This document shows positions 17,431 to 44,499 of a stretch of 44,499 bases of DNA, piece by piece. The stretch's first letter is position 1, and every line of letters begins with the position of its first letter. The notes beneath the pieces were generated by a model. That model had not been told where the DNA came from. It saw nothing but the letters and a program-made list of their open reading frames with translations, and ran no database searches. Made by a program: the position numbers and the translations under genes. Origin of the DNA: Candidatus Parcubacteria bacterium (GTDB lineage: Bacteria; Patescibacteriota; Minisyncoccia; UBA6257; 2-01-FULL-56-20); assembly GCA_027355945.1 (NCBI GenBank), contig DAIEHA010000007.1:1-44499 (forward strand). The letters are read 5' to 3'.

Positions 17431-17903
17431 GTGCGTCCTCCTTCGGTTATAGAGACGTTTCGCAACCCTTCCTTTTTACCGTATCCGAATTTTATCCATA
17501 CAGCACCCCGCGGGATCGCATCCTTTATCCGCTCACCCCATTCAATGAGGACGATGTTCCTCGGATCTTCGAGAAGCTCATCGAATCCGAGCACGGAGAG
17601 ATGGGACGCATCTTTCAATCGGTATGCATCCATATGGAATACGTGTTTCCGTGCCGCCCGCGCGACATAGCGCCGCATGATCACGAATGTGGGGCTCGGG
17701 ACCCGGCGGCGGACGCCCAACCCGTGCAGGAACCCCTGCACGAACGTCGTCTTTCCCGCCCCAAGCTCCCCGGAAAGCACCACGACAGAGGCTCCCTTAT
17801 CCCCCGGGGCCTCCTTCAGAAATCCTTCCGAGAACACCTCGCCGAGGCGTTTCGTCTCCTCCGAGGAGGATGTGCGATAGATAGTCGTTTTTTTTGACCG
17901 CAT
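17427..17903 (-). CDS. tsaE: tRNA threonylcarbamoyladenosine biosynthesis ATPase TsaE
   Basis: LSGELGAGKTTFVQGFLHGLGV, SPTFVIMRRY, HMDAYRL, IVLIEWGERI; ATGA overlap with downstream gene. Confidence 0.92.
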   Translation of the reverse strand: MRSKKTTIYRTSSSEETKRLGEVFSEGFLKEAPGDKGASVVVLSGELGAGKTTFVQGFLHGLGVRRRVPSPTFVIMRRYVARAARKHVFHMDAYRLKDASHLSVLGFDELLEDPRNIVLIEWGERIKDAIPRGAVWIKFGYGKKEGLRNVSITEGGRT

Positions 17904-18597
17904 ATGCAAATAAGAGCATTATGACCGCGCCAAGACCCATTGCCGAAGCCGCAACCGATGCCGGCCCGGTCCCCGGATATCCAAGAGGAATGCCGATCCC
18001 GTACCGCGGCGGTGCCACAACATTCCCGAACGCCGCATTCGCGGACCCCGGCGTGGGATCCGTGAACATGAATATGCCCGCCGCAGCGCCTTCCTCGATG
18101 CGTGAAAAACTTCTCGCTTCTGGCGCAGCGCCCCGGAACGCGGCTTGATCGATGATTGTCCCGTCCGGGCCATATAACAATACTGCCCCATCCGTATTTT
18201 TGAAAGACGGCGCCCCTTCGCTGCGGACCACGAAAAGGTATCCTCTTCCGGGGATGGTCCTGTTCCCGAGCGGGAACGCTTTTGTGCGCGAAGGGACGAT
18301 CGCCGCCCCCCGTTCCGGGGTCGCAGTCCTCGTGCCCGTGCCAAGCGACCATCCATCCAGGCGCACCGCGGCGGGAGCGTCATTGAAAAGTTCGGCAAAT
18401 TCCCCCGAGGCATCGGGACCCGCGGGATTGGGCAGCCATTCATTGATGCGGACCACCGCGTGATCGTACCTCTCCGCGATCAATAAAGGCTGAAGCCTTT
18501 GCTCCCCGTCGCTGCGTTGTGTGCGGAATGCGGCCCCTTCGGGATCCGCAACGAGGCCCGCCTCAGAATATCCTGAACAGAAGCTGCACGAGTACAA
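17797..18597 (-). CDS. Lamin-tail-domain (LTD) protein with C-terminal TM anchor
   Basis: VVRINEWLPNPAGPDASGEFAELFN..VRLDGWSL..RGYLFVV..GAVLLYGPDGTIIDQ; C-terminal TM AAsAMGLGAVIMLLFAYAV; N-terminal start uncertain. Confidence 0.75.
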   Translation of the reverse strand: MYSCSFCSGYSEAGLVADPEGAAFRTQRSDGEQRLQPLLIAERYDHAVVRINEWLPNPAGPDASGEFAELFNDAPAAVRLDGWSLGTGTRTATPERGAAIVPSRTKAFPLGNRTIPGRGYLFVVRSEGAPSFKNTDGAVLLYGPDGTIIDQAAFRGAAPEARSFSRIEEGAAAGIFMFTDPTPGSANAAFGNVVAPPRYGIGIPLGYPGTGPASVAASAMGLGAVIMLLFAYAVKKNDYLSHILLGGDETPRRGVLGRISEGGPGG

Positions 18598-19531
18598 GAC
18601 CGATCACGCCGAGGATCGCGACATATGAGAACACGGAGGCATTCGGGAACCCGCCTTTGGGGACGGTCGTCGTGGGGGTATATTCCTCAAGCCGTTCATT
18701 GCCCGCAGCATCGAATGCCCGCACCGCGATGGTATCGGTGAGCGACTGGTCGGTAAGGAGATAGGGGCTTATTGCCCTCTTCCAATTCCATTGGTCCTCG
18801 GGGAGCTTGAGGTTGGAGGAAGGGATCTCGGCGACCTCATAATGATCGATGCCCGTCTGCTTGTCCACGGTCGAAAACGTGGCAAACCATTGATTATTGA
18901 AAAGCGAGGGGTCGCGATATACGCCGATCGCAAAAGGTTCGGGGGGGATGGTGTCATCCTCGAGCGCCTTCTGCCAGGTATCCACCGCTGCGAACTGCCC
19001 CTGCAGCAGCTCCCCGTACTTCGCACCCGCCGTCGTAAGAGGTGCGATCGTCCCCTCGCCGTCGTTCAGCGTCGCTTGGGTGCCGGGAAGGAACGTGAGC
19101 GATGCGTTTTCCGGGGCGGTGGAGGACCCTTCGCTCGTCGATGTGGCAAAGCGGAAATAGATGGTGGCAAGCTTATTGCTGAGCGACGGGTCTCCGGGAA
19201 CGCGTCCGCAATATCCTCCGGGAAGCCCCCCCACGAACGATACGATCCCATACTGCGGATAGATCGTGGGATTCTTCACCCACATGGAGAATATGGAATC
19301 CCCATCGCTCACGGCGACCGCCTGAAGCACGTCCGCCGGATATGCGATGTCCACCTCGGCCGCATTGATGCATTGCGATGCGCCCGTATCAAGACGCACG
19401 CTTACCGGAAAGGTGACGCCCGGCGGATATTTCCCCGTTGCCGGATCGATGTAGATCTGGGCCGCGTGCGCAAAGAAGGGCGCGAACCCCGCATACGCCA
19501 CAATCGCAAGGATGATACCGTTCCTTTTCAT
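18563..19531 (-). CDS. Cohesin-domain surface protein with C-terminal TM helix
   Basis: QIYIDPATGKYPPGVTFPVSVRLDTG..INAAEVDIAYPADVLQAVAVSDGDSIFSMWVKNPTI..YGIVSFVGG; TM SVFSYVAILGVIGLVLVQLLF. Confidence 0.75.
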   Translation of the reverse strand: MKRNGIILAIVAYAGFAPFFAHAAQIYIDPATGKYPPGVTFPVSVRLDTGASQCINAAEVDIAYPADVLQAVAVSDGDSIFSMWVKNPTIYPQYGIVSFVGGLPGGYCGRVPGDPSLSNKLATIYFRFATSTSEGSSTAPENASLTFLPGTQATLNDGEGTIAPLTTAGAKYGELLQGQFAAVDTWQKALEDDTIPPEPFAIGVYRDPSLFNNQWFATFSTVDKQTGIDHYEVAEIPSSNLKLPEDQWNWKRAISPYLLTDQSLTDTIAVRAFDAAGNERLEEYTPTTTVPKGGFPNASVFSYVAILGVIGLVLVQLLFRIF

Positions 19532-19563
19532 TTATATTAAAATTATATCACACGGAGCGGGGG

Positions 19564-20724
19564 TCATCCCGTCCAATAGTAGAGAAGGATGCTCAGATCC
19601 GAAAGGTCCACCACGCCGTCGCCGTTCAGGTCCGCGGTGGGATTGCTGGTCCCCCAATAATAAAGGAGTATCGAGAAATCCGCGAGGTTCACCCTGCCGT
19701 CGCCGTTCAGGTCCGCAAGCAGCTTTTTGCTCGGCGTACCGCTGCCCACGTAAAAAGGCACTGCCTGGCTTATCGTGCTCCGCAGCGTCGCACCGTTCTC
19801 CATCGTAATGAAATCGGCGTCCACCGTATGATAAGCATCGTTCTGAAGCACCGACGTATCCACGGGCACCATCCATCCTCCCCCAGCGTTCGTACTCGTC
19901 GTCACCACGATATTACCCCCGGAATGCACATGTACCTCGATGGTTGACGACGGCACGGATTCCCCGGACACCGTCACGACACCTCCTTTCGCCACTTGGC
20001 GTTTATCGATGGATATCGTCGGAGGAAGAAGTTCACCGGAGATCGTGGTCGCGGCGTCCGCGGTGACGGTGAACGTCGTCGTGAGCGCGATCGACTTGAG
20101 CCCGGTCGAATCCTGGGCCCATATGCCGAATGTATATACCCCCGGGGAGATGTTCGTCGTCGAAAAATAGAAGTTCGCATTGGAATCGGCCTGGACGACG
20201 CCGATCGCCTGTCCGTCCTGGAGGATGTTCACGCTCGCACCCGGATATGCCTGTCCTTGGATGACCACGGTCGTAGGATTCGGCGCGGTGTAGCTTCCCG
20301 GAGAATAACCGAACGAGGGCGCGGGCGCGGGGCCGGGACCCGGCTGGGGCGCGAGCGACGTGATCTGGCACGTCGCCGAGCATCCGTACCCCGGCACTCC
20401 GTTCATCGCGCCGGCATCGCATTGCTCCCCGTACTGAGGCTGGAGGATCCCGTCGCCGCAATACGGCGCCCACGCCCGGCATCCCGGCATGCACTGCCGA
20501 TTGGCCGTCGACGTGGAATACTGCCCCGTGTTCGTCCCGGTGTCGCACACTTCGGTGGGGGCCTGCACGATGCCATCCCCGCACACACTGATCGTCACGG
20601 TGGTCGTTGCATAGCTCTGGGCGCGCGCCGGGCTTATCGGCCGCACCGAAGGGAACAGCGCTGCCGCCATGGCTGCCGCGGCGGAGAATATGCCTATGGA
20701 GCGCAGGGATGGCCGGCGGATCAT
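19564..20724 (-). CDS. Secreted Ig-like protein with C-terminal type I dockerin and Cys-rich CGDG repeats
   Basis: Signal peptide; CGDGIVQAPTEVCD / CGDGILQPQYGEQCD; duplicated F-hand DLNGDGRVNLADFSILLYYWG..DLNGDGVVDLSDLSILLYYWTG*. Confidence 0.82.
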   Translation of the reverse strand: MIRRPSLRSIGIFSAAAAMAAALFPSVRPISPARAQSYATTTVTISVCGDGIVQAPTEVCDTGTNTGQYSTSTANRQCMPGCRAWAPYCGDGILQPQYGEQCDAGAMNGVPGYGCSATCQITSLAPQPGPGPAPAPSFGYSPGSYTAPNPTTVVIQGQAYPGASVNILQDGQAIGVVQADSNANFYFSTTNISPGVYTFGIWAQDSTGLKSIALTTTFTVTADAATTISGELLPPTISIDKRQVAKGGVVTVSGESVPSSTIEVHVHSGGNIVVTTSTNAGGGWMVPVDTSVLQNDAYHTVDADFITMENGATLRSTISQAVPFYVGSGTPSKKLLADLNGDGRVNLADFSILLYYWGTSNPTADLNGDGVVDLSDLSILLYYWTG

Positions 20725-20732: not shown

Positions 20733-21737
20733 TTATGCCCTCGGCGCGTGCGGAGGAGGAGGCGTCGGAATACCCTTCTTTCGGCGGCGGCTTCGGAAAA
20801 ATCCTCGGATGAAGAAAAGGATCGCCCAGAGCACAAGCAGTATTCCTGCGAGGACCGCGAATGTGATGAGCTTCTCCTGCCATGGCAGGACGAGGAAGTT
20901 GTAAGGGATGTATCCGGGGATGCTTCCGGGCGGCAGCACGCTGAGGTCGAGGGTGCCCTGTCCGATAAGATCGCTATCATCCCTTCCGTAGATCTGATAG
21001 AAAACCTTGTAGGTTCCTTGGGGTAGATAGGTGGGCATCTCCGCGGTCACGGTCTTCGTCTGGAACGGATCGACGCTTGCAAGCCAATTCGTGTTCTGTT
21101 CCACCTCGAGCACCTTCTGCGTGAGATAATCGCTGTAGGTAAATACCACTTTTTCCGGACTTCCCGAGATGTTCCCGTCGTTCTCGATATCCATATTGAA
21201 CAGGACCTTGCCCGGGAAATGCATCCATAACCACGTGAACCCCTGTTCTGCGTTCGTCATCGACACGCGCCGCACTTTGAAATTGACGTTCTTCTCATTG
21301 ATGACGCGGAGGTTCACATCGATCTGCGCACCGATCGTGAGACCGACGGTCCCCGCTACGGGGCCGCTCATCGGAGAGACGACGACCTGGATGTTCCCCT
21401 GATACTGTCCGAGCTTCGCATTGCTCGGCACGTTCACGCTCACGATCATCGGCATCTCCTGGGTGCCCGAGGGCATCGCGAACTGCATGCCCTTATCGAT
21501 GGAAATCCAGCTTTCCGCGCCGGGGACGTTGATCGTCACTTTTGCGGTAAGGTCCTGGTCCGGCGCTCCGCGCACAAGGAGGATCCTCTGTTCATAATGA
21601 GAGCCTGGTGCGAGCGCATCGTTCGTCACATAAGGAGGAGTGATGCCGAACCCCTCGGCATCCGTCCGATGCACGCCGAACGGAAAACCGGCGCACACCA
21701 TAAGCGCCGCCGCCGCTATGAAGATCATCTTCCTCAT
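20733..21737 (-). CDS. Membrane-anchored Ig-like/DUF916-like protein
   Basis: Signal peptide, beta-rich ectodomain, LVLPWQEKLITFAVLAGILLVLWAILFF TM, basic tail. Confidence 0.65.
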   Translation of the reverse strand: MRKMIFIAAAALMVCAGFPFGVHRTDAEGFGITPPYVTNDALAPGSHYEQRILLVRGAPDQDLTAKVTINVPGAESWISIDKGMQFAMPSGTQEMPMIVSVNVPSNAKLGQYQGNIQVVVSPMSGPVAGTVGLTIGAQIDVNLRVINEKNVNFKVRRVSMTNAEQGFTWLWMHFPGKVLFNMDIENDGNISGSPEKVVFTYSDYLTQKVLEVEQNTNWLASVDPFQTKTVTAEMPTYLPQGTYKVFYQIYGRDDSDLIGQGTLDLSVLPPGSIPGYIPYNFLVLPWQEKLITFAVLAGILLVLWAILFFIRGFFRSRRRKKGIPTPPPPHAPRA

Positions 21738-21810: not shown

Positions 21811-23661
21811 CTACCAGTACTGTGCGGGGCTCTTCACGCCAATGAACGTGTTCTGCCCGGTATAGGCGCCCGAAAGCTGGATGGTGCTCGGCACCGCGAT
21901 TCCCCAGAAGGTCGATCCCGTGTTCGGCGAGGATGTGGCGGTCGATTTGGGGATCTGGATCGGCACAAGGGTCCCCGGATTCGTAAGAAGGGTTGCGCCC
22001 GAACCGTATGCGACGGTCGACGTGGCGTACTGTATCTGCCCCACCGGAATGGTCGAGGTGGTGGAGACGGCGCAGCTCGGATAGGTGGTACACATATTCG
22101 CGCCATACAGGGTCTCGTTCAGACCGACGTTCCCCGTCGATGCAAGGATCGTGGATGTTGCGAGTGTCGGCGTGCTGGAGCCCGGGCTCAAACCGCCGAA
22201 ATTGATCGCGGGGGTATCGAGCTGGGCCGCGAGGAAGCTCGCAACCTTGTTGCCGACCGCAGATTCCGTAAGCGGGCTCGATGACCCGTTATGGTTCGTC
22301 GCTTGCGCGCTCACGAGCCAGTTCTGATTGTAATATTGCGTATCGCTCGCGGTCGTACCGTCCGTGGGGTCTGCGACGTACCAAAGCGGGAAATAGCAGG
22401 TCCATGTCGCACTGATGGAGCTCGATCCATTGCACGATGCGGCATCCTGCGTACAGGTGACGGGCCACGTGGAGGATCCCACCGCCTCGGGGTAGCAATT
22501 ATCAGGATTGTAATTCGGTCCGGTCTGGCACGCTGCCTGGCCAATGCCCGAACGATACACGTTGATGAGGGCCGAGGTGATCTCCTGTCCTCCGGTGATC
22601 GTCTGACAGCTGTTATCGTCCGATACGGTGAACTTCACTGCGAATCCGTTCGTCTGCCCGTTGGGCACCGTGAGCGCAAGGGGGTTCGTGCTTCCGTCGG
22701 TGTTCAGAAGGCTTATGCTCGACGATGCGATCGTGGGAGCCACGCTGCTTATGGCGTATGTGGACGTCGCTCCCTCCGCACCACCCAATGCGGGAAGTCC
22801 GTGTTGATCCACGACGTATCCATAGGAAGGATAGGAACCGTCGGGGCGCGGCAGCGGGGTCGTATAGGAACAGGTGGGATTCAGGGTCGTCGTTGCGGAG
22901 GTGCAGTATGTCCCCGCGGGACCGCAGACCGAACCCGTGAAGTCGTTGGCTTTACAGACGAAAAGCTGAATGGTGTCGGTTGCTCCCGTGAACGTGTCGG
23001 TATCCGATGCGACCGCCGTCCAGCTGATGAGCGTACCGGGGTTCACCGGGCCGGTGTTCGAGATGGACGCGAAGATCGGAGGATGGTTCACCACGAAAGG
23101 CGATCCCGTCGTATATGTCGGGTTGCATTTGGCGCCGCCGAGATTGTTGTCGCAGATCCACGCATACCATGAATCGAACTGGGGATCGCTGCTCGACGCG
23201 GTATAGGTCGTCGTCGCCGTGGCCGTGCTCGGCGTGACCGCGGATACGCCCCACTGGTTGACGGTGCCGCCGCCGCACGTAGGCGAACCCCCTGACGTAC
23301 CGGGGGTCGGCGTGCTCGTCGATTTACAGAGAAGGAGGTAGTAGCTGTCGTTGTTGGGATCGGTCGCCACGGCATACCACGTCACTTTGCTCCCCACGTT
23401 CGTCGGTGCGGTGGTGGTGGACACCGGATTCTCGTATGCATTCGTCGTCCAGTTGGGCGGCGTATTGAGCACCGTCACCGTCGTCGTCGCCGTGCTTTGG
23501 GCGAACGTAAAGCGGGCATGATAGAGGGCTCCCGTCGTCCAGAAGTTCACCACGATGGCAACGACCGCCACAAGGATGCCCGAAAGAATCACGGCCATGC
23601 TCACGCGGCCCTTCACATCACGGACTCTCTCTTTCCACCAGGCGATCCAGCGAACGATCAT
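21811..23661 (-). CDS. Large Thr/Ser-rich surface protein, N-terminal TM anchor
   Basis: N-terminal TM MAVILSGILVAVVAIVVNFWTTGALYHARFTF; C-terminal domain INFGGLSPGSSTPTLATST.. homologous to 27840..29897 C-terminus. Confidence 0.75.
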   Translation of the reverse strand: MIVRWIAWWKERVRDVKGRVSMAVILSGILVAVVAIVVNFWTTGALYHARFTFAQSTATTTVTVLNTPPNWTTNAYENPVSTTTAPTNVGSKVTWYAVATDPNNDSYYLLLCKSTSTPTPGTSGGSPTCGGGTVNQWGVSAVTPSTATATTTYTASSSDPQFDSWYAWICDNNLGGAKCNPTYTTGSPFVVNHPPIFASISNTGPVNPGTLISWTAVASDTDTFTGATDTIQLFVCKANDFTGSVCGPAGTYCTSATTTLNPTCSYTTPLPRPDGSYPSYGYVVDQHGLPALGGAEGATSTYAISSVAPTIASSSISLLNTDGSTNPLALTVPNGQTNGFAVKFTVSDDNSCQTITGGQEITSALINVYRSGIGQAACQTGPNYNPDNCYPEAVGSSTWPVTCTQDAASCNGSSSISATWTCYFPLWYVADPTDGTTASDTQYYNQNWLVSAQATNHNGSSSPLTESAVGNKVASFLAAQLDTPAINFGGLSPGSSTPTLATSTILASTGNVGLNETLYGANMCTTYPSCAVSTTSTIPVGQIQYATSTVAYGSGATLLTNPGTLVPIQIPKSTATSSPNTGSTFWGIAVPSTIQLSGAYTGQNTFIGVKSPAQYW

Positions 23662-23763: not shown

Positions 23764-24966
23764 CTATTTATAGCGTATTGCCTCGAGCGGACTTATGGAC
23801 GATGCCCTTCGCGCGGGGAATATTCCCGTAATGAAACCCACGAGAGCCGAGAAAACCGTGATAAATCCGAGGAAAGGCAGCGGGAATGCGAAAAGCGCCA
23901 CCGCAGCACCGCCAAAATGCGTAGCCACAAGGTTTAATAGGTAGTTGATGATGAGACCTCCGGCGATGCCTATGGCCATCCCCGTCATGCCTCCAAGAAA
24001 ACCGACCACGACCGCTTCCGCGAGGAAAAGAAACTGGATGTCCCGGGGCGACCCCCCGATCGTACGCATGACGCCGATCTCCCCCGTACGCTCGAGGAGC
24101 GTCACCGTCATGGTGTTCACCATGCCGATCGCCGATACGATAAGTGCGATACCCCCGAACCCGGCAAGGACCCACTGGACGCCGGTGAAGATCTGGTTTG
24201 CCTGGTCCACCGTCTTCGAAAGCGCCGAGACCACATAGCCGGCCTTCACGATGGCGGCCTGGACGCCGCCCAGATTGCCGCTCGCGTTCACGCGCACCTG
24301 CACTTTGTCGTACTGCTGGATCCCCACCTGGGAGGAAAGCGTGGCGAGCGGGATCATCGCATAGATGGAGGCGCTGTCATTCGTCACCCCCGTCACGGTG
24401 AAATTGCCGTTCAGAGGAACCTGCTCGCTCTGTCCCCCGTTTTGGGCCTGCGTCACGATCCGGAACGATACCGGTTTCCCGATGATCGCCTTCGGATCGC
24501 TCACGCCGAAAAGCTGCAGCGCCGCGCTTGAAAGAATGACGTCGTTCCCGTCCGACGGCTGGTCGGTGAACGGGCTCCCGGCCGCCATGGCAATACCGGC
24601 ATATTTGAAATACGACGCCTGTGAGCCCTCGAGGTCCGTGTTCGCCGAGAGGCCGTTGTAGGTGATGAGCGATTGGAACGTTGCAAGCGGCGAGACGTCC
24701 TGGACGTTCGGGATCGCTTTGAACTTCGCGAGTGCGCCATCGTCGAGGGCCACGGCGCTCGTCGCCGGTGGCGTGACGGTGAGACTGAGCAGCGTATCCC
24801 CGAACACGATCTTCTCGAGCAGGATGTTCTGGAGGCCGAACCCGAGGCCCACGAGCATCACGACCGCCGCAGTGCCCACGCCCATACCAAGGATCGTAAG
24901 CCACGTCCTCGCGGGATTGGTCTTGAACATCCTCGTGGAAAGCTTCAGTGAATCGGCGATCCTCAT
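23764..24966 (-). CDS. MacB/FtsX-type ABC transporter permease
   Basis: N-terminal RTWLTILGMGVGTAAVVMLVGLGFGLQ; C-terminal FGGIALIVSAIGMVNTMTVTLLERTGEIGVMRTIGGS..FPARRASSISPLEAIRYK. Confidence 0.92.
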   Translation of the reverse strand: MRIADSLKLSTRMFKTNPARTWLTILGMGVGTAAVVMLVGLGFGLQNILLEKIVFGDTLLSLTVTPPATSAVALDDGALAKFKAIPNVQDVSPLATFQSLITYNGLSANTDLEGSQASYFKYAGIAMAAGSPFTDQPSDGNDVILSSAALQLFGVSDPKAIIGKPVSFRIVTQAQNGGQSEQVPLNGNFTVTGVTNDSASIYAMIPLATLSSQVGIQQYDKVQVRVNASGNLGGVQAAIVKAGYVVSALSKTVDQANQIFTGVQWVLAGFGGIALIVSAIGMVNTMTVTLLERTGEIGVMRTIGGSPRDIQFLFLAEAVVVGFLGGMTGMAIGIAGGLIINYLLNLVATHFGGAAVALFAFPLPFLGFITVFSALVGFITGIFPARRASSISPLEAIRYK

Positions 24967-24985: not shown

Positions 24986-26296
24986 TCAGAGATACATGCC
25001 CTGCCCTATGAGCTTCTCGAGGTACCAACTTACATACCGCGCCGTGTCCGGATCGAGGCCCATGCCATCCCCCTCGAAGGGAGACTTGAGGCGACGGCGG
25101 AAATCCTCGGACTGGATGAATCCGCGAATGCGGAATTTCAGGAGCTCGTCCATACGCGCGATGTGCTCCGGCGGGATGCGAAACCCGCATTCCCGCATGA
25201 GATCCTCGCGCACCTCGGCGATACGGTCCCCTTGGCGCAGCGAGGCCACTTTCGCCGTGAAGTTATCGCGATAGGCGCGGATGTCCCTCGCCTCTTTAAG
25301 TACGATGTTCAATTTCTCCTCGAAAGTCTCCGCCCGATGCCGATCGATCTCCGGACCGCCTTCGTCCACGGATCTCGTGAGCTTGTCCACGAACCCCTCG
25401 TCCGTGAGCTTCCCGTCGATGAACATGCCGACCGTCCGCTCCAATCGCTCGATCTGATCGAACCCGATGTCCTGGGTGAGGAAGTTCACGACGCTCTTCA
25501 CCCGCAGCTCCTCCGGCGATGCATACGGATAGATGCGTGCCAACTTCTCTATCTCGGAAAGGATCGACGTGCCGGGATCCGTCTGCTTGATCTGCTTCTT
25601 CTCCGGGTTCACCACCTCGCGCTCCACGCCTCCGTCCTTCATATGATACACGCGGTGCGCGTACGGCAAGAGCTTCGCATCATGGGTGACGAGAATGACG
25701 GTCTTCTGCTGTTTTATGTTGATCTCCTCGAGCATGCCCATCACCTGGTCCGCCGAAACGCTGTCGAGGTTGCCGACCGGTTCGTCGGCGAAGAGGATCT
25801 CGGGATCGTTGATGAGCGAGCGGGCGACGGCGACGCGCTGCTGCTGTCCGCCGGAGAGGTCGGTCGACCGCTTGCGCGCCTGCTGTTCCACGCCGAACTG
25901 CTTGAGCAGCTTCATGGACCGGATATAGCGTTCCGCGGGCGGCACGTTCGCGAAGATGAGCGGCAGCGCGACGTTGTCGATCACGCTGAGCGAGGGGATG
26001 AGGTTGAACGATTGGAAGATGATCCCCACCGTGCTCCTTTGGAATCGCACCATGTCCTTCACGCCGTACTTATATGGATTCTCCCCTTTCACGAGGATCT
26101 CCCCGGACGACGGCGGAAGGATCCCGAGAAGGCTGTACAGCAGCGTTGATTTCCCGCAGCCCGAAGGACCGAAGAGGATTATGTATTCCTTGGGATAGAT
26201 CTCGAGCGTCTCTCCGCGCAGGGCGTTGTATTCGTTCGATTTGCCCTGGTTGTAGATGACCTTGATGTTGTTCACCCTGATGATCGGTTCAAGCAT
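24986..26296 (-). CDS. MacB/LolD-type ABC transporter ATP-binding protein with ~200 aa C-terminal extension
   Basis: LFGPSGCGKSTLLYSLLG, STDLSGGQQQRVAVARSLINDPEILFADEPVGNLD; extra C-terminal helical region. Confidence 0.9.
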   Translation of the reverse strand: MLEPIIRVNNIKVIYNQGKSNEYNALRGETLEIYPKEYIILFGPSGCGKSTLLYSLLGILPPSSGEILVKGENPYKYGVKDMVRFQRSTVGIIFQSFNLIPSLSVIDNVALPLIFANVPPAERYIRSMKLLKQFGVEQQARKRSTDLSGGQQQRVAVARSLINDPEILFADEPVGNLDSVSADQVMGMLEEINIKQQKTVILVTHDAKLLPYAHRVYHMKDGGVEREVVNPEKKQIKQTDPGTSILSEIEKLARIYPYASPEELRVKSVVNFLTQDIGFDQIERLERTVGMFIDGKLTDEGFVDKLTRSVDEGGPEIDRHRAETFEEKLNIVLKEARDIRAYRDNFTAKVASLRQGDRIAEVREDLMRECGFRIPPEHIARMDELLKFRIRGFIQSEDFRRRLKSPFEGDGMGLDPDTARYVSWYLEKLIGQGMYL

Positions 26297-26306
26297 GATG
26301 ATTCGA

Positions 26307-27788: not shown

Positions 27789-27839
27789 GTTGTTATGATA
27801 CCACACGCACGGGCATCGCCCCGTGCCACACCTCCTCGT

Positions 27840-36088: not shown

Positions 36089-36100
36089 CCTTTTATGGTA

Positions 36101-36544
36101 TCACGCCGCGGTCGGCGTTTCCTTCCCTTGTCCCATCCCCCTCTCCATGCGTTCGCGCCGTGCCCCGAGGTGGAAACTGAGTCCGACAAAAAACGCAGCG
36201 ATCCCCACCGCCACCATGAGATACCAGGGCACCGCCGAAGACGATGCGGGAGATCCCTTCGCCGCTTGGGATGCAAGCGCAGCCTTCTGGGACGCAAGGT
36301 CCGCAGCCTCCATGTCGAGCTGGGTCTTTTCCTGGCTCAATTGCGCGTTCAAAGTATTATACGGATTCGGCGCAACACCCACGACCACGCCCACCTGCGC
36401 AAGCATGCTCTTCGCCGGCGCAAATCCTCCCGGCGTTCTTGCGATGAAAAAGGTGCTTCCCACGACGACCGTTACGGCCGCCGCCATGAGTATCGTTCCT
36501 ATCCTTGCGTGTGGCATGCGCATGCCGGAAGCAGGACTATCCAA
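36101..36544 (-). CDS. Small membrane protein: TM - helical linker - TM
   Basis: TILMAAAVTVVVGSTFFIA..LNAQLSQEKTQLDMEAADLASQKAALASQ..VPWYLMVAVGIAAFFVGLSF. Confidence 0.65.
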   Translation of the reverse strand: MDSPASGMRMPHARIGTILMAAAVTVVVGSTFFIARTPGGFAPAKSMLAQVGVVVGVAPNPYNTLNAQLSQEKTQLDMEAADLASQKAALASQAAKGSPASSSAVPWYLMVAVGIAAFFVGLSFHLGARRERMERGMGQGKETPTAA

Positions 36545-37640
36545 AGAAGAAGAACAGGATCATCAGGAATATGATCGCGAAGACCACCGTCGCCACGAGG
36601 ATGAAGACAAGGCGGGAGAACGGAAGCCTTCCTTCAGCGAGGAGTCGCTCCTCGGCGGAGATGGATGCTGCATTGCCCTGGCGGCCCCCGGTCATGGCCG
36701 CGATCCGCCTCCTCACATACGCCCTCACGCCCCAGATGAATCCGAAGACGATAAGCACGAGGATGATGAGAAGTGCGAGTATCGGCACGATCGGGATGAT
36801 CCAGAAGGAGGTCTCCTGGGACACCGTCTTCTGGGCGTTATCCCCGTAGGTAAGGGACATCACCGCATCGAACCTCCCCATCATGAACCCTCCGCTCGTC
36901 CAATTCACCGTGAATGTCCGGTCCTGTCCCGGAAAGATCGCGTCATTCGAATCATTCATGATGACCGTCCCCACCTTCTGTCCGAACATGTTCGTGATAT
37001 CGATCGGGCCGCGCGGGCGGAGCAGGACATTCCCGGTATCGGCCGCATCTGCCGCAAACGTCACGTTCGCATCCTGATAAAGACCCTTGTCCGTGGAGAA
37101 AGAACGTATCTCTGCCGTCTCATTCGCCTGTCCCGCGATCCTGAAATCGAGGAGCGAACCCACCTCATACCCGATGCCGGTCCCCGTAAACTGAGGGCGC
37201 GTGGCGCCATAGGTCACGAAAATCGCCCCATAATGGCCGCCGGGGGCGGCGGTCGAGGGGACGTTCACGGTGAACGGTACGATGACGGCCCCGCCTGCGG
37301 GGATGGTGATCACCGGACTCTGGATGCTCACCCAGGAAGTGATGCCGTATTCGGGCACCGAGGAGCTGCTGAACACCGGTTCGCCACCGCTGTTGAGGCC
37401 CGAGATGTCCTTCACGCTCACCGTGTAGGTCCGCGATACGGGATCCGGATTCGTGACGGTGATCGATGTCGAAAACTTATCGCCGGGATTCACGATCTGC
37501 TGGAAGATCGCGGGCTGCACCTTCACCCCTGTCGCATTGGCTCCCGGGGTTCCCGGAGCGGACTGCGCGAATGCGATCCCTCCAATAAGAGTCGCGACGG
37601 CTGCACCGGCAAGGACCGCTCCCCACGCCTTTTTCTTCAT
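36537..37640 (-). CDS. DUF916-like membrane-anchored protein (copy A)
   Basis: Signal peptide, NPGDKFSTSITVTN, VNVPSTAAPGGHYGAIFV, DTGNVLLRPRGPIDITNMFGQKVG, FWIIPI + TM. Confidence 0.72.
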   Translation of the reverse strand: MKKKAWGAVLAGAAVATLIGGIAFAQSAPGTPGANATGVKVQPAIFQQIVNPGDKFSTSITVTNPDPVSRTYTVSVKDISGLNSGGEPVFSSSSVPEYGITSWVSIQSPVITIPAGGAVIVPFTVNVPSTAAPGGHYGAIFVTYGATRPQFTGTGIGYEVGSLLDFRIAGQANETAEIRSFSTDKGLYQDANVTFAADAADTGNVLLRPRGPIDITNMFGQKVGTVIMNDSNDAIFPGQDRTFTVNWTSGGFMMGRFDAVMSLTYGDNAQKTVSQETSFWIIPIVPILALLIILVLIVFGFIWGVRAYVRRRIAAMTGGRQGNAASISAEERLLAEGRLPFSRLVFILVATVVFAIIFLMILFFFFG

Positions 37641-37688
37641 TACATGCATCGTATCATGCGCCGCCGCACCCTTTCAAGCCTTGAGGGC

Positions 37689-38822
37689 TTAGAAGGTCGG
37701 GGTTGCGACGTAGATGAGGTTGTTCGTGTAGTCGTTCGCGGCAGGCTGCAATGTACCGATCTCGATCCGATAGGCCACCTTCGCGGTTCCCACGTTCTGC
37801 GTCGTTCCGTCCGCAGGACCGTTCCATGCGAACACGGTGAGCGTGGAGGTGGGATTGATGCTGCCGGCATAGAGCGGCGTGGACGTACCGAAGCTTGGCG
37901 CACCGACGATCGAACTGCTCACATCGTCGCTCGTGACGCCGAGATGGCCGTAGGTCGCAGGCTGATTGATGACGTTGCTCGGCGCGGCCCACGGACTCGG
38001 CGTGGATGTCGCATTGCCGTTATCGAAAAGATGGATGGTGTTCCCCGTCTGGCTCGTAAGGTCCTGGTCCTCGTGGACGGTCACCGCAAAGCCGTTTGCG
38101 GCGTTCGTCGTCACATACAGCTGCTGACCGAGCTCGGCGTGGGTGTTCGGTGAGATCACGCCGAATGGGACCGTGGTCGAGGTGGATGCGCCCGTCGTCG
38201 TTGCGCCGTTTCCAAGCGTCGTGGAGGTCGCAAGCCCCGCCACCGTAAAGGTGAAGGTCGTAGCAACCGCCGCCGTCACATTGACGCCATTCACGATCGC
38301 GACGCGGGTTGCCGCGGAATTCGTGCCTGCCGCGACGTTTATCACATAGGACCCGGTGCTCGTCGGGTTCGTGATCGTATTATTCAAAACTTTGAGGGTG
38401 ACCGTTCCCGCGGGGATCGTTGCGCCGCCGCATACGGTGAATACAAGGGAGTTCGTGGTGGTCGCCACGCTGACATTGTTACCTCCGTTGTTACAGGTAT
38501 ATCCGGTGATGGTCATCCCGGTCGAAGTCACATCTGCAAGCACGACGCCGCCTACGTTGCCGAATGCGCTCGTGTTGGGATCGAAGGTATACGTGATCGT
38601 CTGCCCCGTCAACGTGCTCGTCGAATCAGTGAATACTATCGTATGATTCGCTGCAAACCCCGGGCGGGAATCGGACAATGTGTCGCTCACTGAAGTAAGG
38701 CTCACTGCGTGGGCGGTGTTCACAAATCGAAGCATCGTGCTCCACGAAACAAGACTTACGATCAGACCTGCTGCGACCGCGATTGCGACATCGCGATTTG
38801 TCATCGTCCTTTTACTAAACAT
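37689..38822 (-). CDS. TM-anchored surface protein with C-terminal IYVATPTF motif
   Basis: N-terminal TM; PFGVISPNTHAELGQQLYVTTNAANGFAVTV..YRIEIGTLQPAANDYTNNLIYVATPTF*. Confidence 0.7.
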   Translation of the reverse strand: MFSKRTMTNRDVAIAVAAGLIVSLVSWSTMLRFVNTAHAVSLTSVSDTLSDSRPGFAANHTIVFTDSTSTLTGQTITYTFDPNTSAFGNVGGVVLADVTSTGMTITGYTCNNGGNNVSVATTTNSLVFTVCGGATIPAGTVTLKVLNNTITNPTSTGSYVINVAAGTNSAATRVAIVNGVNVTAAVATTFTFTVAGLATSTTLGNGATTTGASTSTTVPFGVISPNTHAELGQQLYVTTNAANGFAVTVHEDQDLTSQTGNTIHLFDNGNATSTPSPWAAPSNVINQPATYGHLGVTSDDVSSSIVGAPSFGTSTPLYAGSINPTSTLTVFAWNGPADGTTQNVGTAKVAYRIEIGTLQPAANDYTNNLIYVATPTF

Positions 38823-38952: not shown

Positions 38953-40062
38953 TCACTTCTTTCGAAGGTCGACTGTCCCCTTCGGATCGCTTCGCGGAAC
39001 CTGCGGACGAGGAGGTTCGTGCGGCGCACTCGGTCCCGAAGAACCATATCTTCCCATCTCGCGTTCGAGCATCTTCTTCACGTATCGACGGAGCAATATC
39101 ACAAACCCTCCTATGACAAGAAGTGCGATCACGCCGTCCTCCGCGAGCATTCCGAGCGGCAGGACCCAGAATGTGAGGGTCTGGGACACGCTCTTCGTCC
39201 CATCGACGCCATAGGCAAGGGTCACTATTGCGGTAAAACGCCCGATATCCCATAGATTTCCTGGGCCCTGCCATTCTTCGCTGAACTTACGGCTGCTCGA
39301 TGGCAGCACGTATCCGAACGTCTCCTCTTGGTTCACCGGGACCGTTCCCTCCTCCTTTCCGAACGCATTATAGATCTGGATCTCCCCCACCGGACGCACA
39401 TGGACGTTGCCGGTGTTCGCGAACACCAGATTGAAATTCACATCCGGCCGCTGATAGAATCCTTTGTCCGTGGAAAATTCCTGGATGTTCCCGGATTCCT
39501 TTATATCCCCCGATACGGTGACGAATATGAGCGCCGAGATGAAGCTCGATATGCCGATATGCGACCCCGACGCGGGAGACCCCTCCGGCGATTGAGTCCC
39601 GATCAGGATACCGGCGTAATGTCCTCCCGGGGATGCGTCTTTCGGGATGTTGATCGAAAAAGGGACGTCAGCCGCGCTTCCCGGCGGCACCACCGCGGTG
39701 GACGATCCGAGTGTTATCCAGTTCGCCAAGGCGTCGGGATCTCCCGCAATCTCCGAAAGATTCTTGAAGGTGCCATGACCCTCCTGATCTGAGGGCGCAA
39801 ATCCCATCACGGTCGCCACCACGGGAAGCGGCGCCGCATTGGTGTTCACCACGCGGATCGAACTCGCCCATGCGTCCCCCGGCGATGCGTTCAACGTAAA
39901 GAACGGGGGGGTGATGGTGAGCGATGTCGCATCGGCCGACTGGGCCGCCGCACGGGGAAGGAAGCACGGCGCACCTGCCGCAAGCGCGACGAGGATGAGC
40001 ACCGCACCTGCCGCAGCGCGGCGCGCATTCGCAAACGTCATTGTGTGCGTAGCATCATTCAT
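38953..40062 (-). CDS. DUF916-like membrane-anchored protein (copy B)
   Basis: FFTLNASPGDAWASSIRVVN, INIPKDASPGGHYAGILIG, NTGNVHVRPVGEIQIYNAFGKEEG, FWVLPL + TM. Confidence 0.75.
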   Translation of the reverse strand: MNDATHTMTFANARRAAAGAVLILVALAAGAPCFLPRAAAQSADATSLTITPPFFTLNASPGDAWASSIRVVNTNAAPLPVVATVMGFAPSDQEGHGTFKNLSEIAGDPDALANWITLGSSTAVVPPGSAADVPFSINIPKDASPGGHYAGILIGTQSPEGSPASGSHIGISSFISALIFVTVSGDIKESGNIQEFSTDKGFYQRPDVNFNLVFANTGNVHVRPVGEIQIYNAFGKEEGTVPVNQEETFGYVLPSSSRKFSEEWQGPGNLWDIGRFTAIVTLAYGVDGTKSVSQTLTFWVLPLGMLAEDGVIALLVIGGFVILLRRYVKKMLEREMGRYGSSGPSAPHEPPRPQVPRSDPKGTVDLRKK

Positions 40063-41059
40063 GATGGTGGGGGTGCTTCAGGTCTATCACCTGCTTGTTC
40101 TTCAGAAGATGCTCGATGAGTTGGCGCCTGCGATGATGCCGCTTCGCATATCCTCGATGCATGAACACGGCGGCCGCGATCACAAGAATGAGCAATATGA
40201 TGAAGATCACGAACAGCTCCTTCCATGGAAGGATCCAGAAGAGCGCCGTATCCGCGAGCTGGGCGTTCTGCGCTCCATAGGTTGCTTCCAATCCTACCTT
40301 ATATTCCCCCATGCTGCCGCCCGCACCATTCCATGTGGCGGTGAACTGCTTGGTGGTTCCCGGCGCGATGGAATCGCCGCCTGGATTCACGGACACCGAC
40401 CCGAGCTCGTGGCCGATGCGATCATAGAAGATCACGTCCCCTCCCGGATCCGATGGGATGTCGCCCGTGTTCTTGATGGCGTAATCGACCGTCATCGGGA
40501 ATCCCGATGATATTCTTTTTTCCGGACCGAAACTCACAAGCTGAAGTTCCTCTTTGAGATCGGAGATGACCGTGAAGTTCACGAGTGCCTGAGGGGCGCC
40601 ATTAAGATTCTTCTCCGCCTCGTCCCTCGTCCCTCCCTCCACAAAGGCAACCACGGCATGATAATCCCCCGCCGTCGCATACGGATTGATCGTCACGTTC
40701 ATGGGAATGGTCTTGGTCTCTCCGGGAGCGAAGATCATCGCCCCGCGAGAGATCCCGATCCAGTCGGCAAGGAGCTCCGGCCTGTTGGAACTCGCCGGAT
40801 CTATGAAGGGTTGCGTTCCGCTCGCGGTAAGTTCGTATACCGATGCAAAGATGTTGAGCTGCCTGCCGCTCGTGTTCGTGACCGTGAGGGTGTAGTTGAA
40901 CATGTCATCCGGGATCCCGTTCCCATCGATCACCGCGGGTGCGACCGTAAGATCCGCGGCATGCGCAACGCGCGTGGCGAATGCGCCCGCCGCAGCGGAA
41001 AACGCCGCGATGGCGACGATGAGCAGGAGCAGGTGTTTCATATTCTTCTTCATTGTCAT
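40055..41059 (-). CDS. DUF916-like membrane-anchored protein (copy C)
   Basis: Same architecture, FWILPWKELFVIFIILLILVIAAAVF TM; overlaps copy B by 8 nt. Confidence 0.7.
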   Translation of the reverse strand: MTMKKNMKHLLLLIVAIAAFSAAAGAFATRVAHAADLTVAPAVIDGNGIPDDMFNYTLTVTNTSGRQLNIFASVYELTASGTQPFIDPASSNRPELLADWIGISRGAMIFAPGETKTIPMNVTINPYATAGDYHAVVAFVEGGTRDEAEKNLNGAPQALVNFTVISDLKEELQLVSFGPEKRISSGFPMTVDYAIKNTGDIPSDPGGDVIFYDRIGHELGSVSVNPGGDSIAPGTTKQFTATWNGAGGSMGEYKVGLEATYGAQNAQLADTALFWILPWKELFVIFIILLILVIAAAVFMHRGYAKRHHRRRQLIEHLLKNKQVIDLKHPHHHE

Positions 41060-41066: not shown

Positions 41067-44000
41067 TCAGAAGACGGGGGTTGCGATATAGATCACGTTA
41101 TCGTTGTAGTTCCCGTTCACCTGCGTCAGTCCCGCTTGAACGCGGTATACGACATTGATCGTGCTCGTGGCGGGTCCGCTCGAATATCCTATCTCCGCCG
41201 GCGTGGACGTGAGCGCGGCATATGAATCGTCCGCGGCGAACCGCGTCGATCCTCCCGAGAGCACCGGACTTCCCGGATGATACCCGTAGCAGGCCGTTGA
41301 GGTCGCGGTGCACGCCGATGACCATGGCAGCGGACTTCCGTTCGTGGCATCCACGCCCGGCAGGATATAGCCGCGTCCGTTCATGAGCGGCGCATCCTGG
41401 AACGCGTACAGTTCGAACCCGTTGGGCGCATCGGTCGAGATGAGAAGCTGCTGCGCCGCCATGGAGCTTGTGGCGATCGTGAGCGTTCCAAACGAGATCC
41501 CCGCCGGTGTGGATGATGCGGTCGTTACGACGCCGTCGGTCGAAGTCCCTTGCGGCATGCCGCTCACCGTAAAGGTGAGGAGCGCCCCTTCCACCGCAAG
41601 ACTTGGATACGATGAGGTGCTGTAAAGTGCCACGGGTGCTCCGGTGCCGTTGTTCACAAGGCGGAAGAAATAGGTCGCGTTCGTCGTCGCACCGTCCCCG
41701 ACGATGGTGAACTCGTACTCGGTGATGGCGCTCGCCTGCTGCGCAAAGGTCGAGGAGCTTATTCCCGATGTGTTGTGCGTACCGCATCCCGGTCCCACGC
41801 CGCTCGCGCATGCATTCGAGTCTGAAAGCACCGCGGTCGAGATCACTGCATTATCCGTACCCCCCGTCGATGTGGCATAGCACCATTGCGACGCAGAGGT
41901 GCAACTCCCCGTCTCCGCGACATACCCCACCCCTGAGGAAAAATTGCTATACGTGGAATATTGAAGTCTGAACTTCACATCGCTCCCCGAAACATTGTTC
42001 GCCTCCGCTACCGCCACGCGAAGCTTGATGATGCTCCCGTTCTGCGCGGTCGAGGGCGCGACATTCTCCCCCGCGAGCGGGTTCACCGGCGTCTCATCGT
42101 TCGCGTCGCCGTAAAATCTCCAGTTCGCCGATTCCGGGTTGAACGGCGCCGTCGTCACGGCAGGATAATATACGTATGAATCGAGTGGCGTCCCGCTGCT
42201 CTTCACCATGCGGAAGCAATACGATGCCGAGGAGCTCGTGCTGTTGTATTGGAGCGCCCAATCATATTCGATGTTGTCCCCGATAAGCGAACGATAGGGG
42301 TTCGCCGCGGATGGATTGGCATCCGTATACACACCGTCGCGCGTGGATACGGAGAGCAGGAGCGTGGTGAGCGGCGTACCGTTCGCCACGCCCGCATTCG
42401 CATATCCGGTCCATGGCCCCGCGCCGCCGATCGCGCCCACGTCGCTCCATGATGCGACCGCGCTGCACGACGTCGTCATCACCCCGTACTGCAGCTTGAA
42501 TGCCTGCGTTGATGTCGGGAGCACCGCGCCGCCGAGCGTCACCGCCATGCGAAGACGCAGCACGCTTCCGTTCGTCGGAGGAGAATCCGCGGCCGTGATC
42601 GCCATATTCTCCCCGAGCGTCGACGTGCCCGCGGGCCACGCCGCGGTCGGCGTGAGCGCGTTCGCATTCGTATACCACCGGTAATAGTTCTCTGCGAACG
42701 TGGAGCTCGCGGCGATCACGCTTATCTGAGGATAGACAGTATACGTACCGATCGACGCCCCGTTGTTCGTCGCTTGAAAGTAATATGTCTGCCCGAAGGA
42801 AGCGCCCTCCGTCGCCTGGATGTTCCATTCGAGCTCCGTGAATTGATTCGTGTTGAGCGTGATCACCGGCGCAGGGGTCGTGCTTTCCAGCATGAAGCCG
42901 CTCACGAATGCCGCTGCCGCCGGAGTGAGAAGATTGTGGGTCGGATCAAGATCTGCGAAATATCCCGATGGACATTCGCGGAACGCCGCGGCGATCGTAG
43001 AACAGGTGGGGTCGACGGGCACGGGGGTCCACGGCCCCGCCGTGGAGGTCGCATATTCCAGACGGAACGCCGCGCTTGCCGCAACATTCCCGTTATTGGA
43101 AAATTCCATGCGCAGCCGCACGCTCGTGTCCTCTGTCGTGCTCGTCGGGGTCGTTTCCGCGGCGCGCCATGTCGCCGAGGGAACCGTGTCCACCTCGGGG
43201 TAGTTCACGTAGCCGTCAAGTGAGGCCCCTGCGCCGGTCATCATGCGGAAACAATATGCCGCACCGGAGGATGCATCGTTGTCCTGCACGACGAAATCCC
43301 ATTCGCCCGCCCCGTTCGCGGGAATGGGGTTCGGGTTCGTCGGCGAGGGATTCTGCTCCACGTACGATTCGGGGACGGTGGAGCTCGCGAGGAGCGTTGC
43401 GGCGAGCGTCGTACCGTTCGTCGTGCCCGCATTGCTGTAGCCGCGCCACGGCACGGACGATCCTGATGCTCCGACATCCGCAAAATTCGCCGATGGCACT
43501 CCGCTGCACGATGCCGCGGTTCCTTTGGGTGCATATTGCAGCTTGAACGATTGCGTGGAACTCGGGAATGCCGCGCCGCCCACCGCGATATTCATCACGA
43601 TCCTCACCGCCCCTCCCGAGACGGTTCCTGTCGCCGCAACGTCCGGCGCGGCGAGCGAGGATGTTGGTTGGACCGCGTCGGCATTTTTGTATATCTGGAA
43701 ATCCTGCTGAGTGAGCGTGGCCGAGGGCATTGCGGTGAACCCCCCAAGCCCCACCCCCGTCGCAGGTCCCACGGTGCCCGCCGCAACCGTGACGTTCGCC
43801 GAGGGATTCGCGATCGTAAGCTCGAAGGTCTGGCCTCCGGGAGAGGAGGATGCGATATCCACTTTTGCATAGATGCAGACGTTCGCGGTACCCACGGGCA
43901 TGGTGCCCGTCACGGTCGCTTGTTCCGATGCATTGAATGAGCCTCCTGTTGCGTTGAAGAGGGTCGCTCCCGCAGGGATGCTCGAGGTGGCGCAGGTGGT

Positions 44001-44499
44001 CGACGCCTGATAATAGAGGGCGAGGTTCCCGAGGTATGCGTTCGCGTTCAGGGTGCCCGAGGCGGTCACTGCGATCTGCGTGACGTTCGTGGAACCGGAA
44101 TCCCTCGCCATCGTGAATGCGCCGCCGGTGTAGAAGCCGGCTGCGGGGACGGTCGTCGTCGCGAACTGGGATCCCGTCGCTCCCACCGCGACCGAGGCGG
44201 GGGCATAGGTGATGACGATGATGCCCTGGGTGCCTGCGGCGCCGGCGCCCGCGACGCACCCGGCATTCGCGCATCCTCCTCCGCCGCCTCCACCCGCACC
44301 CCGTACACCCGCAACGCCGCCGCCCGCACCCGCATTCGTTTTGAAATTCGCACCTCCTCCTCCGCCGCCTCCTCCACCGGACCCGTATGTGGTCCACTCT
44401 GTGCCGGCTGTTCCGGTGCTGCCCACGACAGTGGTACGGCCGCCGGTCCCTCCTCCTCCGCCTGCACCGCCAAAAGTACCATCGCCCTGCCCGCCCGTG
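41067..44499 (-). CDS. Giant surface protein: glycine-rich N-terminal region, four tandem ~150-190 aa modules, IYIATPVF C-terminus (5' end beyond window)
   Basis: Frame open to right window edge (..GGQGDGTFGGAGGGGGTGGRTTVVG-STGTAG..); repeated FKLQY..YCFRM..YPxV units. Confidence 0.8.
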   Translation of the reverse strand, partial: TGGQGDGTFGGAGGGGGTGGRTTVVGSTGTAGTEWTTYGSGGGGGGGGGANFKTNAGAGGGVAGVRGAGGGGGGGCANAGCVAGAGAAGTQGIIVITYAPASVAVGATGSQFATTTVPAAGFYTGGAFTMARDSGSTNVTQIAVTASGTLNANAYLGNLALYYQASTTCATSSIPAGATLFNATGGSFNASEQATVTGTMPVGTANVCIYAKVDIASSSPGGQTFELTIANPSANVTVAAGTVGPATGVGLGGFTAMPSATLTQQDFQIYKNADAVQPTSSLAAPDVAATGTVSGGAVRIVMNIAVGGAAFPSSTQSFKLQYAPKGTAASCSGVPSANFADVGASGSSVPWRGYSNAGTTNGTTLAATLLASSTVPESYVEQNPSPTNPNPIPANGAGEWDFVVQDNDASSGAAYCFRMMTGAGASLDGYVNYPEVDTVPSATWRAAETTPTSTTEDTSVRLRMEFSNNGNVAASAAFRLEYATSTAGPWTPVPVDPTCSTIAAAFRECPSGYFADLDPTHNLLTPAAAAFVSGFMLESTTPAPVITLNTNQFTELEWNIQATEGASFGQTYYFQATNNGASIGTYTVYPQISVIAASSTFAENYYRWYTNANALTPTAAWPAGTSTLGENMAITAADSPPTNGSVLRLRMAVTLGGAVLPTSTQAFKLQYGVMTTSCSAVASWSDVGAIGGAGPWTGYANAGVANGTPLTTLLLSVSTRDGVYTDANPSAANPYRSLIGDNIEYDWALQYNSTSSSASYCFRMVKSSGTPLDSYVYYPAVTTAPFNPESANWRFYGDANDETPVNPLAGENVAPSTAQNGSIIKLRVAVAEANNVSGSDVKFRLQYSTYSNFSSGVGYVAETGSCTSASQWCYATSTGGTDNAVISTAVLSDSNACASGVGPGCGTHNTSGISSSTFAQQASAITEYEFTIVGDGATTNATYFFRLVNNGTGAPVALYSTSSYPSLAVEGALLTFTVSGMPQGTSTDGVVTTASSTPAGISFGTLTIATSSMAAQQLLISTDAPNGFELYAFQDAPLMNGRGYILPGVDATNGSPLPWSSACTATSTACYGYHPGSPVLSGGSTRFAADDSYAALTSTPAEIGYSSGPATSTINVVYRVQAGLTQVNGNYNDNVIYIATPVF

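What the first reader, a model, noticed from the sequence alone, without database searches (positions are those of the whole stretch)
17797..44499. Candidate cohesin-dockerin-organised cell-surface assembly in a ~27 kb one-strand cluster
The cluster holds two dockerin-terminated secreted proteins, two membrane-anchored cohesin proteins, an LTD protein, FN3/Ig proteins, four DUF916-like single-span proteins, a MacB-type ABC pair and an Hsp20. There are no recognisable glycoside hydrolases, so this does not look like a classical cellulosome. The cohesins carry TM anchors and the dockerins are C-terminal, which would let secreted Ig-like proteins dock to the envelope non-covalently. Dockerin F-hands and cohesin-like sequence are seen directly; the assembly is inference.
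Basis: partly seen in the sequence, partly recalled or inferred. Interest (0 to 1): 0.82.

Follow-up and report, generated by a model that had tools for sequence, protein, structure and literature searches.

The report
Membrane-anchored cohesin–dockerin surface operon
A tiny, uncultured Patescibacteria bacterium carries neighbouring genes for secreted proteins with a calcium-binding plug (dockerin) and for membrane-anchored sockets (cohesins), and the same plug-then-socket gene order recurs in dozens of its relatives, which suggests a widespread, non-cellulose way of clipping proteins onto the cell surface.

Summary
Profile searches find two cohesins and two dockerins in the cluster, and an AlphaFold model of the weaker cohesin matches only solved cohesins among its top 50 hits. 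A second paralogous set lies elsewhere in the genome. No dockerin protein of this genome has a catalytic domain, so it is not a cellulosome.

In 142 genomes of the same class, dockerins and cohesins co-occur (46 genomes, 20 expected). In 41 a dockerin gene is followed within 400 bp, on the same strand, by a cohesin gene. Cohesin proteins almost always end in a transmembrane helix (118 of 123); dockerin proteins rarely have one (8 of 78).

The 27 kb holds two conserved modules: WxLIP–dockerin–Hsp20–long cohesin, and ABC/FtsX–WxLIP–dockerin–short cohesin. Long cohesins carry an undescribed ~80-residue cytosolic helical tail. A small heat-shock gene sits between dockerin and cohesin in 17 of 19 widely spaced pairs and none of 48 tight pairs.

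Best explanation: Ca2+-dependent, non-covalent tethering of Ig-like surface proteins to membrane cohesins, probably for adhesion. Binding is not shown; my one co-folding attempt was inconclusive. Novelty: new variant of a known kind.

The parts
17797..18597 (-). LTD (lamin tail domain) protein with C-terminal hydrophobic span; found again only in the closest relative
   Evidence: Pfam LTD E 4.5e-9; homologue only in L028; span 213-231
18563..19531 (-). CohS: signal peptide, cohesin (19013-19471), Ig-like region, transmembrane helix at the extreme C-terminus
   Evidence: Cohesin 23.0/24.1 bits; AF2 pLDDT 90.8 and Foldseek hits to cohesins; TM 304-322
19564..20724 (-). Doc1: signal peptide, Cys-rich DUF4215/myxo_disulf repeats, Big-type Ig domains, C-terminal dockerin (19567-19728) with two complete Ca2+ loops; ORF runs to 20883, likely start 20724
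   Evidence: Dockerin_1 39.7 bits; loops DLNGDGRVNLAD / DLNGDGVVDLSD; no C-terminal TM
20733..21737 (-). WxLIP-type (DUF916/DUF3324-like) protein with C-terminal TM, module A
   Evidence: family profile A14 hits EfmWxLIP1 E 4.6e-7; homologue in C22 set E 1.5e-30
21811..23661 (-). secreted protein with an undescribed C-terminal domain (alignment A15), conserved upstream of WxLIP in module A
   Evidence: homologues in 19 of the 80 related loci; no Pfam or PDB match
23764..24966 (-). MacB/FtsX-type permease
   Evidence: MacB_PCD E 1.2e-21, FtsX E 1.6e-14; homologues in 9 related loci
24986..26443 (-). ABC ATPase partner of the permease (likely start about 26296)
   Evidence: ABC_tran E 3.8e-30
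26307..27806 (-). secreted protein with three fn3 domains
   Evidence: fn3 E 2.8e-17
27840..29897 (-). secreted protein, C-terminal domain homologous to that of 21811-23661
   Evidence: phmmer; A15
29944..31959 (-). low-complexity secreted or N-anchored protein homologous to the N-terminal part of the 1779 aa C22 protein
   Evidence: phmmer E 1.1e-33
31956..33791 (-). CohL: signal peptide, cohesin (33291-33698), Big-type Ig domains, TM helix, conserved cytosolic helical tail (31959-32255); ORF runs to 33872
   Evidence: Cohesin 42.6 bits; tail conserved in long cohesins; TM
33760..34362 (-). Hsp20 without signal peptide, between Doc2 and CohL; ORF runs to 34455
   Evidence: HSP20 E 2.4e-10; same position in 17 of 19 widely spaced Doc/Coh pairs
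34400..36088 (-). Doc2: signal peptide, Ig-like domains, C-terminal dockerin (34403-34564)
   Evidence: Dockerin_1 30.3 bits; complete Ca2+ loops
36537..37649 (-). WxLIP-type protein, module B (two C-terminal hydrophobic spans)
   Evidence: PF06030 19.2 bits, below cut-off; A14; spans
37689..38822 (-). secreted protein with undescribed C-terminal domain (A16, ends YxATPxF)
   Evidence: 12 related loci; no Pfam or PDB match
38953..40062 (-). WxLIP-type protein, module B
40055..41059 (-). WxLIP-type protein, module B
41067..44498 (-). large Gly-rich secreted protein, cut by the contig end; C-terminal domain of the A16 type

Best explanation
A non-cellulosomal cohesin-dockerin surface-anchoring system. 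Dockerin proteins (Doc1, Doc2, and a third on contig C22) are exported by their signal peptides, carry Ig-like or fibronectin-like domains outward, and end in a Ca2+-loaded dockerin. Cohesin proteins encoded next to them are exported, fold outside as one cohesin plus Ig-like domains, and stay in the cell membrane through a C-terminal helix. Each dockerin docks on a co-encoded cohesin, so a soluble adhesin-like protein is held on the cell surface without a covalent bond. Short cohesins (CohS) are simple anchors. Long cohesins (CohL) also reach the cytosol through a conserved helical tail. The WxLIP proteins, encoded just upstream, are further membrane-anchored Ig proteins that probably hold other secreted proteins of the cluster. 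Shown: domain identities, topology pattern, Ca2+-loop integrity, conserved gene order and co-occurrence. Inferred: binding, partner choice, adhesive function.
For: Domain identity by profile and fold. In 142 class genomes: dockerin in 56, cohesin in 51, both in 46 (20 expected, hypergeometric P about 1e-21, which ignores relatedness); 53 dockerins in 41 genomes have a cohesin on the same strand within 400 bp downstream; about 30 genomes have dockerin followed by two or more cohesin genes. Across 240 genomes of the phylum, 35 of the 38 nearest pairs within 6 kb are in the order dockerin, cohesin and none is on opposite strands. Among 80 loci from named genomes, 118 of 123 cohesin proteins have a TM after the cohesin; 8 of 78 dockerin proteins have a span beyond residue 60; 68 of 78 have an N-terminal export-type hydrophobic segment. 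97 of 104 dockerins have both Ca2+ loops complete. The two dockerin halves are far more alike within a protein (0.56-0.58) than between proteins (0.28-0.30), as in dual-binding dockerins. Dockerin and neighbouring cohesin distances correlate (r 0.59; partial 0.47 given WxLIP; permutation p 5e-4). No enzyme on the three dockerin proteins of this genome, and no sortase hit in it.
Against: No binding has been measured. AlphaFold2 of an in-frame read-through dockerin-cohesin stretch of a relative (L009) folded both domains but gave pTM 0.58, so no confident interface; it used a monomer model, 17 mostly unpaired rows and an artificial linker containing a signal peptide, so it is weak evidence either way. 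Ten class genomes have dockerin without detected cohesin and five the reverse. The adhesive role rests on Ig/FN3 content alone.
Confidence: 0.72

Rival explanations
1. The long cohesin is a receptor-like transmembrane link: docking of the dockerin protein outside is passed to the conserved cytosolic helical tail, and the locus-linked Hsp20 acts on the tail or holds the long secreted proteins unfolded before export.
For: Tail of about 83 residues in 96% of long against 14% of short cohesin proteins; its HMM hits only cohesin proteins plus two other membrane proteins, one directly downstream of a CohL; Hsp20 between dockerin and CohL in 17 of 19 wide pairs, none of 48 tight pairs; the housekeeping Hsp20 is separate.
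Against: No known signalling domain in the tail; charged helical tails can be simple cytosolic anchors; Hsp20 is absent from module A loci that also have CohL.
Confidence: 0.2
2. A cellulosome-like enzyme complex for polysaccharides, as was suggested for a Microgenomates genome (PMC9123182).
For: Same interaction modules; single dockerin proteins of relatives match an RGI-lyase beta-sheet domain, CBM_4_9 or an M12 peptidase.
Against: No catalytic domain on any of the three dockerin proteins here and on nearly none of 24 from relatives; one cohesin per protein here, no CBM.
Confidence: 0.04
3. The domains are homologous but used apart: dockerins bind a host or another protein, cohesins act as plain Ig-like surface modules, and adjacency only reflects general clustering of surface genes.
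For: No measured binding; co-folding inconclusive; surface genes do cluster.
Against: Strict order and strand, very short spacing (median 106 bp between the domain ends), strong co-occurrence, and a correlation with the cohesin beyond that with the equally close WxLIP gene.
Confidence: 0.1

Closest known systems
Non-cellulosomal cohesin/dockerin proteins of Archaeoglobus fulgidus and other archaea (ANME)
   Same: Cohesin and dockerin modules without cellulose machinery; archaeal pairs were shown to bind (as cited in PMC9012536); the CohS model matches the A. fulgidus cohesin 2xdh
   Different: Here the pairs are a conserved bacterial operon with WxLIP and, in one type, Hsp20; in ANME dockerins sit on ABC substrate-binding proteins and there are scaffoldin-like proteins (PMC9012536)
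Cellulosome (Clostridium, Ruminococcus)
   Same: Type I-like dockerins with two-fold symmetry and type I-like cohesins
   Different: No dockerin enzymes, no multi-cohesin scaffoldin in this genome, anchoring by a TM helix instead of SLH or sortase
WxL-WxLIP gene clusters of Lactobacillales/Bacillales (PMC10599100)
   Same: WxLIP proteins (two Ig domains and a TM helix) in clusters with large secreted proteins
   Different: No WxL domain detected; other C-terminal domains (A15, A16) lie next to WxLIP; cohesin-dockerin pairs are added
Dockerin protein SEML1_0315 of the Saccharibacterium Southlakia epibionticum (PMC10633639) and cohesin/dockerin genes of Shapirobacterales (PMC9123182)
   Same: Dockerins and cohesins in Patescibacteria; the first is essential for growth
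   Different: Read there as glycan-related or as a cellulosome; gene order, topology, CohL tail and Hsp20 linkage are not described in the passages read

Membership tests
Cohesin (PF00963) | profile score over curated cut-off | tested here: met
   CohL 42.6 bits; CohS 23.0 (protein scan, just under) / 24.1 (six-frame) against 24.1
Cohesin (PF00963) | cohesin jelly-roll fold | tested here: met
   CohS AF2 model, top 50 PDB hits all cohesins, best E 3.7e-10
Dockerin type I (PF00404) | two duplicated Ca2+ F-hand loops, profile over cut-off | tested here: met
   39.7 and 30.3 bits against 22.9; all ligand positions present
Cohesin-dockerin interaction system | specific Ca2+-dependent binding of the pair | tested here: inconclusive
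   indirect genomic support; AF2 read-through pTM 0.58; binding cannot be measured here
Cellulosome | dockerin-bearing polysaccharide-degrading enzymes | tested here: not met
   three dockerin proteins in the genome, none with a catalytic domain
Cellulosome | scaffoldin with several cohesins and a CBM | tested here: not met
   four cohesin proteins with one cohesin each, no CBM
WxL cluster | WxLIP protein (DUF916 + DUF3324 + TM) | tested here: met
   family profile A14 aligns over both domains of EfmWxLIP1, E 4.6e-7; 18 of 24 members hit PF06030 at E <= 0.01
WxL cluster | WxL-domain proteins | tested here: not met
   no WxL family hit in any cluster protein; A15 and A16 without Pfam or PDB match
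HSP20 (PF00011) | alpha-crystallin domain over cut-off | tested here: met
   40.9 bits against 20.8

The most novel reading that the evidence does not exclude
A Patescibacteria-wide transmembrane docking system in which long cohesins couple extracellular dockerin binding to a new cytosolic helical domain, with a dedicated small heat-shock protein encoded between plug and socket; a central attachment or sensing device of these epibiont-like bacteria.
Probability: 0.2. Interest if true: 0.8.

Novelty: new variant of a known kind. Interest (0 to 1): 0.66.

Why it matters
How Patescibacteria hold proteins on their surface and attach to hosts is largely open, and many genomes, including this one, lack a detectable sortase. 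A conserved operon that pairs an exported dockerin protein with its own membrane-anchored cohesin gives a concrete, testable anchoring mechanism in about a third of the class genomes sampled. It also warns that cohesin/dockerin hits in these genomes should not simply be read as cellulose degradation, as has been done for a Microgenomates genome (PMC9123182).

Tried and rejected
Cellulosome reading: rejected (no enzymes, no scaffoldin). Sortase complementarity: sortase in 40 of 142 class genomes, 13 of them also with cohesin against 14 expected, so no trade-off. Pfam 'Cellulase-like' hit on CohS (20.8 bits, cut-off 25) is below threshold and covers only the profile's end: discarded. CopC hit on 20733-21737: that protein belongs to the WxLIP family instead. 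WxL domains in the neighbouring secreted proteins: not found. A first co-folding alignment was misaligned by MAFFT and was rebuilt. The Hsp20 itself is not specific to the system: 137 of 142 class genomes have one; only its position is.

Full report
Setting. The window is contig C25 (44,499 bp) of a 735 kb genome in 27 contigs, 91.8% complete. Named relatives of its dockerins are almost all Patescibacteria (Kaiser-, Falkow-, Campbell-, Nealson-, Giovannoni-, Kerfeld-, Komeili-, Portnoybacteria and others). A near relative (BP9.bin97, JAJYDL010000001.1) is collinear with the window over 14.5-24.7 kb and 29.3-39.5 kb, mostly at about 84% DNA identity.

The observation. Pfam confirms two dockerins, two cohesins, LTD, fn3, Big-type Ig, MacB/FtsX with ABC ATPase, and Hsp20 at the stated places. 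CohS is borderline by Pfam alone (23.0 bits in the protein scan, 24.1 six-frame, cut-off 24.1), so it was tested by structure: pLDDT 90.8, pTM 0.86, and the top 50 PDB matches are all cohesins. The cohesin and dockerin family profiles built here also hit solved cohesins (E 3.6e-15) and dockerins (E 7.2e-19). The DUF916-like claim holds: their family profile hits only the Enterococcus WxLIP structure in the PDB.

A second set. The genome has three dockerins in all. The third, on C22, lies in a paralogous operon: 1779 aa Gly-rich protein, Ig protein, WxLIP, dockerin protein, CohS, CohL. Its two cohesins were missed by the first Pfam look and found with custom profiles.

Gene order in relatives. 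In 240 genomes across the phylum, dockerin occurs in 85 and cohesin in 70. At least 44 have both (25 expected). Of the 38 nearest dockerin-cohesin pairs within 6 kb, all are on the same strand and 35 have the dockerin first. In 142 genomes of the class, using profiles built here, 46 have both (20 expected). 53 dockerins in 41 genomes are followed by a cohesin within 400 bp, with a median of 106 bp between the two domains, which is little more than a stop codon plus a signal peptide. About 30 genomes show a dockerin followed by two or more cohesin genes. These P values ignore relatedness, but the pairs come from many families.

Topology. Among the 80 loci, 118 of 123 cohesin proteins have a hydrophobic span after the cohesin, 68 of 78 dockerin proteins begin with an export-type segment and only 8 have a span further in (simple hydropathy, not a trained predictor). 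A few relatives have cohesin and dockerin on one protein (L017, L019, L023, L024), which would allow chains.

Signs that the modules work. 97 of 104 dockerins keep all Ca2+ ligands in both loops. The two halves of each dockerin resemble each other much more than halves from other proteins (0.58 against 0.30, and 0.56 against 0.28 in a non-redundant set), above every permutation. Such two-fold symmetry is the known basis of dual binding in cellulosomal dockerins, although internal gene conversion could add to it. Dockerin distances follow those of the adjacent cohesin (r 0.59) more than those of the equally adjacent WxLIP (0.44); the partial correlation is 0.47, p 5e-4.

Two module types. Module A (window 26.4-18.6 kb): ABC/FtsX, 21811-type protein, WxLIP, dockerin of 300-440 aa, CohS, and usually CohL. 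Module B (window 41-32 kb): secreted proteins and WxLIPs, dockerin of about 560-670 aa, Hsp20, CohL. Hsp20 fills the gap in 17 of 19 pairs spaced 400-1400 bp and in none of 48 tight pairs; in two more loci it directly follows the dockerin before the contig ends, and in two it follows a short cohesin. The genome has another, separate Hsp20. Module A of the window lacks its own CohL; the C22 set has both.

CohL tail. Long cohesin proteins end in a conserved helical cytosolic tail (median 83 residues; consensus around ALREEVxEQIxxLDKKPGLSxxEKxVxEKLxEALDISExFIxKEIxDVEKEL). A tail of 40 residues or more is on 96% of proteins of 450 aa or more and on 14% of shorter ones. It matches no Pfam or PDB family convincingly.

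Mechanism. The simplest reading is non-covalent, Ca2+-dependent tethering of exported Ig-like proteins to membrane cohesins. The genome has no sortase hit. Adhesion to a host or matrix is an inference from Ig/FN3 content and from what is generally known of these bacteria as epibionts; in a cultured Saccharibacterium a dockerin protein is essential and was proposed to target host glycans (PMC10633639). Why an Hsp20 sits between plug and socket is unexplained; a dedicated pre-export holdase is one idea.

Limits. Binding is untested. Co-folding was possible only as a read-through of a relative's in-frame pair (stop codons read as serine) with a monomer model, and gave no confident placement (pTM 0.58). 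The literature search covered open-access papers only; within it I found no paper that describes this operon.

Noticed in passing
G000:C22:29949-40857 (L006/L007): Second, paralogous operon: Gly-rich 1779 aa protein, Ig protein, WxLIP, FN3-Big-Big-dockerin, short cohesin, long cohesin.
   Followed up: yes
31959-32255 and tails of long cohesins in L008-L107: Conserved, undescribed cytosolic helical tail on long cohesin proteins; also on a 104 aa membrane protein directly downstream of a CohL (L053:6048-6362) and on an SP-Ig-TM protein (L104:7837-8532).
   Followed up: partly
33760-34362; L034, L041, L050, L054, L063, L066, L069, L070, L076, L077, L079, L084, L089, L092, L105 and others: A small heat-shock gene conserved exactly between dockerin and long-cohesin genes.
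   Followed up: partly
21814-22413, 27843-28442: Undescribed C-terminal domain (A15, invariant GN and W) of secreted proteins encoded beside WxLIP; possible functional counterpart of WxL, no sequence match to it.
   Followed up: partly
37692-38309, 41070-41684: Another undescribed C-terminal domain (A16) ending in YxATPxF, on large secreted proteins upstream of WxLIP.
   Followed up: partly
L017, L019, L023, L024: Proteins with both cohesin and dockerin, in L024 two cohesins plus a dockerin, which could form chains.
   Followed up: no
L030 (PXAT01000168.1), L058 (PXDL01000553.1): Records titled Ectothiorhodospiraceae and Balneolia carry typical Patescibacteria-type loci; probably misbinned contigs.
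   Followed up: no
G180 (phylum scan): A Patescibacteria genome with 21 dockerin matches, several in tandem in one 1465 aa frame, but no cohesin match.
   Followed up: no
36089-36536: About 450 bp without a clear minus-strand gene between WxLIP and Doc2; could hold a promoter for the distal part of module B.
   Followed up: no
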